Made by a program: the position numbers and the translations under genes. The notes beneath the pieces are model-generated. The model ran no database searches and was not told where the DNA came from. It worked only from the letters and a program-made list of their open reading frames with translations. Of a DNA stretch of 27,816 nucleotides, positions 3,200 to 22,196 are shown in pieces; positions within the stretch are counted from its first letter, which is position 1, and every line of letters starts with the position of its first letter. Where the stretch lies: positions 1 through 27,816 of the IMG/VR virus record IMGVR_UViG_3300001533_001179, one strand, 5' to 3'. This DNA comes from a virus.

Positions 3200-3776
3200 C
3201 TCTTTTACTACCCTAAAAGTAAACTTTACTCTCACTTCTTAAATCACTCCGCTATTACTCATCCTTTTTAACAAAATATTTAATTATATGGACAAGTTAC
3301 TCTCCTATACTTCCCTGTACTTCCCTTAAAATCCCCAATAACTTACGATTTGAAAGTTGTCCCTATTGGTGACAACAACTAAATTGAAAGTAAAAACACA
3401 ATATTACTATCAATATGAAAGTTCCCTTTCCCAAAAGTCCCAAAATTTTTCCAGAAATTTTTTTAAAATCCACTAAAATCCAACTTTTTTCAAAAAAATA
3501 TGGAAAAGTTGTATTAAAAGTAACACAAGTAATGGTAATAATATCAAAACTTACCATACATATCTCTGTACATTCCCTATAATCCTTGTAATCCATACAT
3601 ATTCCCTGCTACTTGATACAAATCCAAATTCCTGTAAGCCCTGTAAACAAGTCCAAATTTCCTTAAAAGTTCAAAAAATACGGCAGATTTTTTTAGGGGT
3701 TCGTCCGCCCACTCACGTTCCCGCACCCGCCACTTGCATGAGTTGGTCTTGGTGTTTGTGTTATCGGATTGTGCCG
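3200..3776. other. Non-coding divergent region with scattered TTCCCTRTA-like motifs
   Basis: No convincing gene is present between the two divergent operons. The stretch is A/T-rich with short motifs of the type TTCCCTGTA or TTCCCTATA at about 3311, 3321, 3422, 3573 and 3602, plus related CCCTGTA and TCCCTATT forms at about 3639 and 3360. A TTTCCCAAAA element lies at 3427-3436, and a short C-rich stretch at about 3700-3735 comes before the tandem array. These may be protein-binding sites for an origin, packaging site or regulator, which is inference. The minus-strand frame at 3363-3596 shows no protein-like composition. Confidence 0.45.
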
Positions 3777-3980
3777 GGTATCTGGGACTGGTATCTGGGA
3801 CTGGTATCCGGGACCGAGTATCGGGGTTTGGTATCCGGGACCGAGTATCGGGGTTTGGTATCTGGGACTGGTATCCGGGACCGAGTATCGGGGTTTGGTA
3901 TCTGGGACTGGTATCTGGGACTGGTATCCGGGACTGGTATCTGGGACTGGTATCCGGGACTGGTATCTGGGACTGGTATC
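3777..3980. repeat. 13-bp tandem repeat array (iteron-like)
   Basis: Twelve copies of a 13-bp unit, GGTATCTGGGACT or its variant GGTATCCGGGACT/C, are mostly head to tail. Three are followed by a 14-bp variant GAGTATCGGGGTTT (3816-3829, 3843-3856, 3883-3896). The last partial unit ends at 3980. The array is much richer in G than its surroundings and carries a GGG run every 13-14 bp. All three plus-strand frames stay open through it only because the unit lacks stop codons. The location in the divergent non-coding region, upstream of a strong promoter, suits an origin iteron, a centromere-like site or a G-quadruplex-prone element. Confidence 0.85.
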
Positions 3981-4177
3981 TTTTATTCAGGTTTGTTTAT
4001 CCGTTCTGGATTATTCCCTGTTCTGGATTGTTTGTTATATTGCCGTATGGTAACATATAGGACAATGTAATGACATAACCGTATTATATTGGTGTATTGG
4101 TATGGATTGATTTTTTTGCAGTGGTGCAAATTTGATTGAATGAATATCGGTCATATTCCGTTAACGTTTTTTAACAA

Positions 4178-4935: not shown

Positions 4936-5112
4936 ATGAAAAAATATAAAATTAAAATAGATGGAGAGGACTATATGATGACTCGCGAGGAAATAACTGG
5001 TATTTTGAATAAAAGATCAGCTAAAATATTCTTTAGAACTGTAAAACAGGGTGGAGAAATTAGTTTTCCATTCAATGCTATAAAACCCGAATATCGGGAA
5101 GTGGAGGCCTGA
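4936..5112 (+). CDS. Small hypothetical protein
   Basis: This 58-residue basic protein (MKKYKIKIDGEDYMMTREEI at its start) is read from ATG 4936; the in-frame TTG at 4927 gives three extra residues and is less likely. It looks like a compact alpha/beta fold with several lysines, but no family is recognised. Its last codons overlap the 5' strand of the tRNA-like hairpin at 5106-5153. Confidence 0.6.
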   Translation: MKKYKIKIDGEDYMMTREEITGILNKRSAKIFFRTVKQGGEISFPFNAIKPEYREVEA

Positions 5113-5153
5113 CTTGGTAGTTTTGCCGGAGTTCAATTCTCCGGCAGGCCACA
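5106..5153 (+). ncRNA. tRNA-like element lacking an anticodon arm (possible tRNA relic)
   Basis: GGCCTG (5106-5111) can pair with CAGGCC (5145-5150), followed by ACA like a discriminator and a partial CCA. A canonical T-arm sits inside: stem CGGAG/CTCCG with the loop TTCAATT (5132-5138), which fits TTCRANY. A D-loop-like TTGGTAG occurs at 5114-5120. There is no room for an anticodon arm. It might instead be a simple hairpin, since the stem GCCGGAG/CTCCGGC lacks a following T-run. Confidence is moderate that the resemblance is not chance. Confidence 0.4.
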
Positions 5154-5782: not shown

Positions 5783-5964
5783 AAACTTTTTATCACTTGA
5801 AAATCTTTATGCGGGAATGTCGTATAGAAGATGTTCACGATTGGAATGAGAGAAGGGATCAAGCTAAAAAACTTTTCCCGCAAAAGTTAATAAACCGGCT
5901 CGACATGAGTGGGTTTATTAAAAGTGTAGTAAACCAAAAATCAAAACACTCTGACGAGTCCTGA
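5779..5964 (+). CDS. Small hypothetical protein whose 3' end overlaps a hammerhead ribozyme
   Basis: This 61-residue protein (start MKTFYHLKIFMRECRIEDVH) is charged and probably soluble. It is coupled to the preceding gene by an ATGA overlap. Its last seven codons and the TGA stop (5962-5964) form the stem I strand, catalytic core and stem II loop of the hammerhead at 5944-5999. Translation to the stop would therefore unfold the ribozyme, and cleavage would occur 28 nt beyond the stop. Function is unknown. Confidence 0.6.
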   Translation: MKTFYHLKIFMRECRIEDVHDWNERRDQAKKLFPQKLINRLDMSGFIKSVVNQKSKHSDES

Positions 5965-5999
5965 AAGGACGAAACCGGTGTGAAAGCCGGTAAGTGTTT
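5944..5999 (+). ncRNA. Hammerhead ribozyme (type I arrangement)
   Basis: All conserved parts are present in order. Stem I is AAACACT (5944-5950) with AGTGTTT (5993-5999), 7 bp. The core is CTGACGA (5951-5957). Stem II is GTCC/GGAC (5958-5961 and 5967-5970). GAAA lies at 5971-5974. Stem III is ACCGGT with GCCGGT (5974-5979 and 5986-5991), closed by the loop GTGAAA. The A15.1-U16.1 pair is A5974-T5991, and the cleavage triplet GTA (5990-5992) predicts a cut after 5992. Stem I is the open stem. Cleavage would give the downstream mRNA (gene at 6022) a 5'-hydroxyl end about 29 nt before its start codon. Confidence 0.93.
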
Positions 6000-6021
6000 A
6001 AAACTTTTAAAATTTATTGAT

Positions 6022-10666: not shown

Positions 10667-10684
10667 CCTTATCCCGGTGGAGTA

Positions 10685-10709
10685 AAAAGCAGGTTCAACT
10701 CCTGCTTTT
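10685..10709 (+). other. 9-bp hairpin with a T-loop sequence (tRNA T-arm-like or weak terminator)
   Basis: AAAAGCAGG (10685-10693) and CCTGCTTTT (10701-10709) are fully complementary around the 7-nt loop TTCAACT. The inner part, GCAGG-TTCAACT-CCTGC, is a textbook tRNA T-arm and is followed by GGTACA. A GGTGGAG stretch resembling a D-loop lies just upstream (10676-10682). I find no matching acceptor strand, so it is not a complete tRNA. The four T residues in the stem could alternatively make a weak terminator before the MoxR gene. Confidence 0.45.
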
Positions 10710-10749
10710 GGTACAAATTCACTTATTGTTTAACTTAAAATTATATGTT

Positions 10750-21673: not shown

Positions 21674-21803
21674 ATTTTGAATTTATAAAATCAGTTCATT
21701 GAAAATATTGAATTTCGTTGAAGTTATTTGAAACTGTTTGGACACGGGTTCGATTCCCGTCTGCTCCACACCACGTAGCAAGCGTGTTTTCGTCAATTAA
21801 TCA

Positions 21804-21833
21804 GGAGGGAAACAAGTAGTGTGTTGTCCCTCC
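21804..21833 (+). other. Hairpin in the segment between the two tmRNA halves
   Basis: GGAGGGA (21804-21810) pairs with TCCCTCC (21827-21833), with a further CAA/TTG pair inside. It sits in the spacer that would be removed when a permuted tmRNA precursor matures into two pieces, and may guide processing. Confidence 0.55.
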
Positions 21834-21897
21834 ACATTTGGGGCAGATTGGCTTAGACAGGCAGAGGTAGGGTAATGGAGAGATTCAGGTGATAACA

Positions 21898-21945
21898 GGC
21901 AAAACTGTTAATCTTTTCAATGCTCCTGTGAGACAGGCAGCATAG
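21898..21945 (+). other. tmRNA tag reading frame (GKTVNLFNAPVRQAA, stop TAG)
   Basis: Starting at GGC, the frame encodes a 15-residue peptide ending in AA before TAG. Bacteroidota tmRNA tags start with glycine, and almost all tags end in two small residues (typically AA) for ClpXP recognition. The end of the frame lies in a hairpin (TGCT-CCTG with CAGG-AGCA, 21921-21942), the position of helix P5. There is no start codon or ribosome-binding site, as expected for a tag. The last residues (VRQAA rather than ALAA) are atypical. Confidence 0.65.
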
Positions 21946-21975: not shown

Positions 21976-22124
21976 GGCAAGGTGGCGGAATTGGTAGACG
22001 CTGTAGGAAGAAGGCGTGAATCCTTTAAGTGAACTCCGATAGTAAGGAAGTTCTGCCTATAATAGACGATAAGTAAGTGTACATAGCTGACAATATAATG
22101 CAGGTTCGACTCCTGCCCTTGCCA
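21976..22124 (+). ncRNA. tRNA-Leu-like RNA with an insertion of about 60 nt
   Basis: The acceptor stem is GGCAAGG (21976-21982) with CCTTGCC (22117-22123) and discriminator A22124. The D-arm TGGCGGAATTGGTAGACGC (21983-22001) is characteristic of tRNA-Leu, and the T-arm GCAGG-TTCGACT-CCTGC (22100-22116) is canonical. The region between is about 98 nt, where a normal leucine tRNA has about 35. GTAGG (22003-22007) can pair with CCTAT (22056-22060) as an anticodon stem, leaving a 48-nt loop holding two hairpins (AAGG/CCTT and GAACTCC with GGA-GTTC). No conventional anticodon loop with U33 is found and no CCA is encoded. It may be a tRNA with an intron-like insert, a tRNA-derived RNA, or a decayed gene. 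Confidence 0.65.
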
Positions 22125-22171
22125 CGTTGCTTAACCACAGAGCTCTGACTGATGAAATATTAGTGGTGACA

Positions 22172-22196
22172 TGCCCGGAGAGACGGGCACTTTTTT
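22172..22196 (+). terminator. Intrinsic terminator of the RNA gene unit
   Basis: TGCCCG (22172-22177) and CGGGCA (22184-22189) form a stem with loop GAGAGA, followed by C and six T residues. It closes the unit that starts at the promoter 21642-21673. Confidence 0.85.

What the first reader, a model, noticed from the sequence alone, without database searches (positions are those of the whole stretch)
21976..22124. 149-nt tRNA-Leu-like RNA with an inserted double hairpin
Acceptor, D-arm and T-arm are good matches to tRNA-Leu, but the anticodon region is replaced by about 60 extra nucleotides that fold into two hairpins. This is too short for a group I intron. It lies in the same transcription unit as the permuted tmRNA. 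It could be a novel tRNA-derived RNA, a tRNA with an atypical intron, or a sponge or mimic of leucyl-tRNA synthetase.
Basis: partly seen in the sequence, partly recalled or inferred. Interest (0 to 1): 0.8.

Follow-up and report, generated by a model that had tools for sequence, protein, structure and literature searches.

The report
Phage tRNA mimics lacking anticodon arm
This viral gene makes an RNA that copies the outer shape of a leucine transfer RNA but swaps the part that reads the genetic code for another folded structure; such RNAs turn out to be common in bacterial viruses, including the classic laboratory phage SPP1, and I found no annotation or description of them.

Summary
Window 21976-22124 is a 148-nt tRNA-Leu-like RNA plus discriminator A73, with perfect acceptor, D and T arms. 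In place of the anticodon arm it has a stem closing two hairpins. It is one member of a large, apparently undescribed phage RNA class. In fetched viral DNA I found 164 distinct relatives with Leu-type D arm, A15-U48, T arm and mostly A73; only 12 keep any 5-bp/7-nt anticodon arm, against 34 of 36 ordinary tRNA-Leu genes. The interiors are structured: one helix typically ends 2 nt before the T stem and often makes a pseudoknot (tail-swap z = -7.9), with covariation in subfamilies. The double hairpin itself recurs in a distant contig, with eight compensated pairs and none broken. Unannotated members lie in cultured phages: SPP1, nitunaviruses such as SBSphiJ5, Leuconostoc phiLM33_01, Lactiplantibacillus Gut-P1. 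An intron is unlikely: intron-mode ARAGORN of 200 shuffled interiors. The window RNA keeps the published determinants of leucylation, which does not need the anticodon arm. Best explanation: a non-decoding tRNA mimic, matured by host tRNA enzymes and probably leucylated, acting as decoy or competitor. What it is: about 0.9. Decoy function: about 0.4, untested.

The parts
21976..21982 (+). acceptor stem, 5' strand (GGCAAGG)
   Evidence: 7 of 7 WC pairs with 22117-22123; 3 pairs compensated versus L015
21985..22001 (+). D arm, tRNA-Leu type (GCG GAATTGGTAGA CGC) with A14, A15 (21990), G18G19 (21993-21994), A20a (21996)
   Evidence: identical to the D arm of ordinary phage tRNA-Leu genes and to the head shared by 119+ viral contigs
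22002..22061 (+). domain replacing the anticodon arm: stem S1 22002-22007/22056-22061 (TGTAGG/CCTATA) closing two hairpins
   Evidence: same fold for window and L015 when tRNA arms are enforced; 2 of the shared S1 pairs compensated
22011..22025 (+). hairpin A (AAGG CGTGAAT CCTT)
   Evidence: L015 has ACGG/CCGT: A-U to C-G compensated
22031..22053 (+). hairpin B (GAAC-TCC ... GGA-A-GTTC) with a bulged A
   Evidence: GAAC/GTTC and the bulged A conserved; inner pair U-A versus G-C compensated in L015
22062..22099 (+). long variable region (38 nt) ending in U48 (22099); no clear V-arm helix in this copy
   Evidence: U48 present; tail-helix score not better than swapped tails for the window (rank 0.90)
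22100..22116 (+). T arm (GCAGG TTCGACT CCTGC)
   Evidence: 5 of 5 pairs, canonical T loop; first pair compensated versus L015
22117..22124 (+). acceptor stem 3' strand (CCTTGCC) and discriminator A73; CCA not encoded
   Evidence: sequence; family: A73 in 147 of 164, CCA encoded in 4 of 164
22172..22189 (+). intrinsic terminator-like hairpin (TGCCCGGAGAGACGGGCA, tail CTTTTTT), probable end of the transcript
21711..21945 (+). permuted tmRNA (neighbour, probably same transcript)
   Evidence: Rfam RF04321, 55.9 bits, above gathering 47; ARAGORN tmRNA* tag GKTVNLFNAPVRQAA

Best explanation
It is a phage-encoded, non-decoding tRNA mimic. Supported here by sequence comparison: an intact acceptor/T/D body with tRNA tertiary contacts, and a structured domain in place of the anticodon arm. 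Inferred from established tRNA biochemistry: host RNase P, RNase Z and CCA-adding enzyme trim it and add CCA; LeuRS can charge it with leucine, because charging needs A73, A15-U48, G18G19 and A20a but not the anticodon arm; it cannot read codons. Guess: during infection it acts as a decoy or competitor. It occupies a host tRNA-binding factor (LeuRS, or a tRNA-attacking defence enzyme) while offering no anticodon to cut or decode, and the fast-changing interior tunes which factor it holds or evades. Estimates: what it is, 0.9; tRNA-type maturation, 0.75; leucylation of the window type, 0.6; decoy function, 0.4.
For: Acceptor helices covary between subfamilies (SPP1 versus SBSphiJ5). U48 is kept in 158 of 164 and A73 in 147 of 164, but a 5-bp/7-nt anticodon arm in only 12 of 164 versus 34 of 36 ordinary genes. 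Interiors carry a helix typically ending 2 nt before the T stem, well above tail-swap controls (z -7.9; 0 of 2000 permutations), with covariation. The double hairpin of the window is conserved in L015 with eight compensated and no broken pairs. Elements are intergenic, on the coding strand, mixed with ordinary tRNA genes, up to 12 matches per record. E. coli leucylation determinants and dispensability of the anticodon arm: PMC9976931.
Against: No expression, processing or charging data. No target is known. SPP1 and nitunavirus members have T73 and a TGCAAAT T loop, which argues against leucylation there. About 45% of the AGTCAGG-ended elements in one listing have other D arms (105 of 235). The window copy lacks the V-arm-position helix seen in many relatives, and the phages closest to the window by helicase lack any such RNA in the stretches fetched. 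The same data fit a scaffold role.
Confidence: 0.45

Rival explanations
1. Stabilised small-RNA scaffold: the tRNA ends serve only for maturation and stability (RNase P/Z, CCA), and the variable interior is the working part, for instance a regulatory, antisense or protein-binding module.
For: Interior is hyper-variable but structured while the ends are near-constant; many copies per phage with different interiors. Precedent: B. [quoted passage not shown]
Against: The Leu-specific D arm with U48 and A73 is kept in more detail than processing alone seems to need. I did not search for antisense targets.
Confidence: 0.3
2. Processing punctuation: tRNA-like modules placed between genes are cut out by RNase P and RNase Z to separate or stabilise mRNAs in phage operons, as mitochondrial tRNAs do.
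For: Elements are intergenic and on the coding strand, including SPP1 between genes 9 and 11. Much shorter acceptor + T-arm elements occur at window 5106-5150 and in SPP1-like phages.
Against: Punctuation does not explain a structured, covarying interior or clustering in tRNA arrays.
Confidence: 0.15
3. Ordinary tRNA with a small atypical intron that is removed to give a functional tRNA.
For: ARAGORN in intron mode proposes tRNA-Met(CAT) with a 72-nt intron at 21976-22125.
Against: 188 of 200 shuffled interiors are also called. Homologue L015 would be tRNA-Ile(AAT). In subfamilies a covarying helix joins the would-be intron to the variable region. No Rfam intron or ribozyme hit here.
Confidence: 0.04
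4. Decaying tRNA pseudogene with random insertions.
For: The window copy has no clear variable-arm helix.
Against: All acceptor, D and T pairs intact; compensatory changes throughout; the same kind of RNA is conserved in SPP1, SPO1-like and environmental phages.
Confidence: 0.04

Closest known systems
Bacillus cereus tRNA-Other and other pseudo-tRNAs (PMC3399842)
   Same: tRNA-like RNA that does not work in translation; proposed as structural element of a regulatory RNA
   Different: tRNA-Other has an anticodon (CCA, Trp) and is chromosomal; the phage RNAs have no anticodon arm and occur in many different copies per phage
Staphylococcal non-proteinogenic tRNA-Gly for pentaglycine bridges (PMC8007984)
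   Same: charged but poorly recognised by EF-Tu, with D- and T-loop variations. From memory, untested: their T loop reads UGC instead of TpsiC, as in the SPP1-type RNAs (TGCAAAT)
   Different: keeps a normal anticodon arm and length; host gene, not phage
tmRNA, including the permuted tmRNA next door (RF04321)
   Same: tRNA-like acceptor/T body carrying an extra structured domain; phage copies exist
   Different: here the D stem is intact, no tag reading frame was identified, the body is tRNA-Leu type and much shorter; Rfam tmRNA matches only the T-arm hairpin at 9.8 bits
Plant-virus tRNA-like structures
   Same: viral RNAs that mimic tRNA, with pseudoknots, some aminoacylated (from memory)
   Different: there the mimic is the 3' end of an RNA genome; here it is a separate element of a dsDNA phage, with canonical acceptor and D/T arms
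Phage T4 stable RNAs of the tRNA cluster (RNA C and D; from memory)
   Same: stable RNAs of unknown function in a phage tRNA cluster
   Different: I could not compare the sequences here and found no open paper on them

Membership tests
tRNA-Leu (decoding) | 7-bp acceptor, Leu-type D arm, T arm | tested here: met
tRNA-Leu (decoding) | 5-bp anticodon stem with 7-nt loop bearing a Leu anticodon | tested here: not met
   absent in the window; 12 of 164 relatives versus 34 of 36 ordinary genes have any such arm
tRNA-Leu (decoding) | E. coli LeuRS charging determinants A73, A15-U48, G18G19, A20a (PMC9976931) | tested here: met
   all present in the window RNA; U48 158 of 164 and A73 147 of 164 in the family
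tRNA-Leu (decoding) | actual leucylation | not testable with these tools
   needs in vitro charging or acid gel
intron-containing tRNA | removal of the insert yields a paired anticodon arm | tested here: not met
   ARAGORN intron call equalled by 188 of 200 shuffles; by inspection its Met(CAT) solution leaves three WC pairs, one G-U and one mismatch
group I intron in tRNA-Leu | recognisable group I core | tested here: not met
   only 98 nt between D and T arms; no Rfam intron hit even at E 5
tmRNA | tRNA-like domain plus tag reading frame, match to tmRNA covariance model | tested here: not met
   only 9.8 bits over the T-arm hairpin; gathering score 47
phage anticodon-arm-less tRNA-Leu mimic (class proposed here) | acceptor + Leu D arm + T arm + U48, no anticodon arm, structured interior | tested here: met
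phage anticodon-arm-less tRNA-Leu mimic (class proposed here) | helix ending about 2 nt before the T stem (common, not universal, feature) | tested here: not met
   window rank 0.90 among swapped tails; L015 has a local variable-arm hairpin with a 4-nt spacer instead. The window belongs to a double-hairpin subtype.

The most novel reading that the evidence does not exclude
A new class of phage RNA: modular, anticodon-free tRNA mimics that are charged or bound like tRNA-Leu but act as rapidly diversifying decoys in the arms race with host tRNA-targeting factors, made in up to a dozen variants per phage and overlooked even in the model phage SPP1.
Probability: 0.35. Interest if true: 0.93.

Novelty: new variant of a known kind. 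Interest (0 to 1): 0.8.

Why it matters
Phage tRNA genes are usually read as codon-supply or defence-evasion devices. A large class that keeps the tRNA body but discards the anticodon arm cannot serve codon supply, so it points to other uses of tRNA shape during infection. Annotation tools miss it: default ARAGORN of 164 members and gives those scattered identities. It is present in laboratory systems (SPP1 and SBSphiJ5-type phages of B. subtilis), so the function can be tested directly. It could also supply natural pseudoknotted tRNA-Leu variants for studying LeuRS, since charging does not need the anticodon arm while editing does (PMC9976931).

Tried and rejected
Chance or pseudogene: rejected by compensated pairs and by conservation of U48 and A73. 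Intron: rejected by the ARAGORN shuffle control and the covarying cross-helix. tmRNA piece or known Rfam family: no significant hit. Finding closer relatives of the window RNA through its neighbours failed: helicase and clamp relatives (L002-L005, L251) carry no recognisable tRNA-like RNA in the stretches held. A pattern for the double hairpin behind the tRNA head found only L015 and its copy L233. Unannotated tRNA-Leu heads in RHEph01, MT835602 and ABPH49 proved to be ordinary tRNA-Leu. A stem starting right after the D arm is hardly more frequent than in shuffled interiors (81 of 164, or 49%, versus 43%), so I do not claim it as a general feature; the helix near the T stem is the general one. 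Nested as well as crossing two-helix folds are more stable than shuffles (mean z -0.72 and -0.62), so not every interior need be a pseudoknot. Literature searches found no description, but the library holds only open-licence papers. A family search around the Chitinophagaceae MAG failed on a handle format and was not repeated, so hosts of the AGTCAGG phages remain unknown.

Full report
WHAT IS THERE. The window is part of a 40,369-base virus record with phage terminase, DnaB-like helicase, sliding-clamp-like and polymerase genes. At 21976-22124 lies a tRNA-Leu-like RNA: acceptor GGCAAGG/CCTTGCC, D arm GCG-GAATTGGTAGA-CGC, T arm GCAGG-TTCGACT-CCTGC, discriminator A, no encoded CCA. Where an ordinary phage tRNA-Leu has 30-36 nt between D and T arms, this has 98. 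Default ARAGORN and Rfam do not call it. It sits 30 nt after a permuted tmRNA (RF04321) and before a terminator-like hairpin.

THE DOUBLE HAIRPIN. A homologue, L015 (second copy in L233), has the acceptor AGTCAGG/CCTGACT and the same kind of interior. Enforcing only the tRNA arms, RNAfold gives stem S1 closing hairpins A and B for both. Comparing pair by pair, eight pairs change on both sides and none is broken: acceptor 3, T stem 1, S1 2, hairpin A 1, hairpin B 1. S1 is two pairs longer in L015. These counts were made by hand from the helices printed, on two independent sequences only. The L015 variable region makes an ordinary small hairpin; that of the window does not.

A LARGE PHAGE CLASS. 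Most loci in which both ends could be paired had interiors longer than an ordinary tRNA-Leu, most with the acceptor AGTCAGG/CCTGACT. The AGTCAGG head occurs in only 3 stretches in 84,980 species genomes, all on small contigs. In the fetched loci I collected 164 distinct insert-type and 36 ordinary Leu-type RNAs. U48 is present in 158 of 164 (36 of 36 ordinary), A73 in 147 of 164, encoded CCA in 4 of 164 (13 of 36). The search pattern itself required A15, the D-loop GG and a T-loop core, so those are not independent evidence; U48, A73 and the missing anticodon arm (12 of 164 versus 34 of 36) are. The ends AGTCAGG...CCTGACT also occur with other D arms (105 of 235). Twenty records carried up to 12 matches each; elements are intergenic, on the coding strand, often among normal tRNA genes.

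STRUCTURE OF THE INTERIORS. The best helix between the last 12 nt before the T arm and the rest of the interior is stronger than when tails are exchanged between members (mean -7.5 versus -5.6 kcal/mol, z -7.9, none of 2000 permutations). Among 69 such helices the spacer to the T stem is 2 nt in 31, the place where the variable arm of a class II tRNA ends. The 5' strand often lies inside another stem, making an H-type pseudoknot (for example L012 and L219 with the same spacing). In subfamily L070/L211/L241 two pairs of this helix exist as three different WC pairs each; in L175/L194/L235 the interior stem and the acceptor covary.

CULTURED PHAGES. Unannotated members occur in Bacillus phage SPP1 between genes 9 and 11, in nitunaviruses such as SBSphiJ5, BSP10 and BSP9, in Leuconostoc phage phiLM33_01 and in Lactiplantibacillus phage Gut-P1; candidates also lie in Flavobacterium phage FL-1 and in a 735-kb megaphage. 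SPP1 has AACACGG/CCGTGTT where SBSphiJ5 has TGTGTGG/CCACACG: four acceptor pairs compensated; both keep GTACGGG/CCCGTAC followed by 2 nt and the T arm. These firmicute members have T loop TGCAAAT and, in SPP1 and the nitunaviruses, T73. The 2018 reannotation of SPP1 does not contain the words tRNA or ncRNA (PMC6316719), and the paper on its relatives ran tRNA finders without reporting such RNAs in the passages found (PMC9607348).

MECHANISM. Shown by sequence only: a tRNA body under selection, no anticodon arm, a structured replacement. Inferred: maturation by RNase P, RNase Z and CCA enzyme. Predicted: leucylation of the window type, since E. coli charging depends on A73, A15-U48, G18G19 and A20a, anticodon-arm-less tRNA-Leu stays chargeable, and the anticodon arm is needed for editing only (PMC9976931). 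I favour a decoy or competitor for a host tRNA-binding factor, because the tRNA-specific surface is conserved while the code-reading part is lost and the interior diversifies within single genomes. A stabilised scaffold for a variable functional module is the main rival; punctuation of mRNAs may apply to the shortest elements. The SPP1 type shows that leucylation is unlikely to be the whole story.

WHY NOT AN INTRON. ARAGORN in intron mode calls tRNA-Met with a 72-nt intron, but also of 200 shuffled interiors. The family would get nearly every amino acid, and homologues would disagree.

NOVELTY. tRNA mimics and pseudo-tRNAs are a known kind. An anticodon-arm-less, tRNA-Leu-type, modular class in dsDNA phages was not found in Rfam 15, in the annotations of the phages above, or in the open literature searched. 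I rate it a new variant of a known kind; it may prove to be a new class.

Noticed in passing
window 5106-5150: 45-nt mini tRNA-like element: acceptor GGCCTG/CAGGCC, linker ACTTGGTAGTTTTG, T arm with a 6-bp stem, followed by ACAAA; begins at the stop codon of a short ORF. Same layout as a conserved element of SPP1-like phages (ACGGACGGCTGGTGTCAG...GTCCG).
   Followed up: partly
window 10675-10712: Intergenic T-arm-like hairpin AAAGCAGG-TTCAACT-CCTGCTTT followed by TGGTACAAA; only a 3-bp acceptor is possible.
   Followed up: partly
window 5943-6000: Hammerhead-ribozyme-like element: AACACT-CTGACGA-GTCC..GGAC-GAAA-CCGG..CCGG-TA-AGTGTT, all three stems closed; Rfam Hammerhead_3 scores it below gathering (18.8 versus 48.5).
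   Followed up: partly
L261 421-863, L262 215-970: The intergenic cassette after gene 9 of SPP1-like Bacillus phages (279BB001, PM1) differs between phages and holds other tRNA-like elements, for example GTGAAAG...CTTTCAC and the 61-nt GCGAAGG...CCTTCGC.
   Followed up: partly
L234 1300-1535: crAss-like phage cr4_1 has an unannotated tmRNA-like sequence (GGGGCATTATGGTTTTGACAGC...) followed by a T arm and acceptor, a second case of a tmRNA next to a tRNA-like end.
   Followed up: no
L140 4124-4186: A freshwater-1 RNA (RF02979, just under gathering) lies inside the same phage tRNA array as AGTCAGG elements.
   Followed up: no
window 3734-4070: Repetitive short ORFs (repeated WYLGLVSGTGIRD-type units in all three frames) between the terminase genes and the early region.
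   Followed up: no
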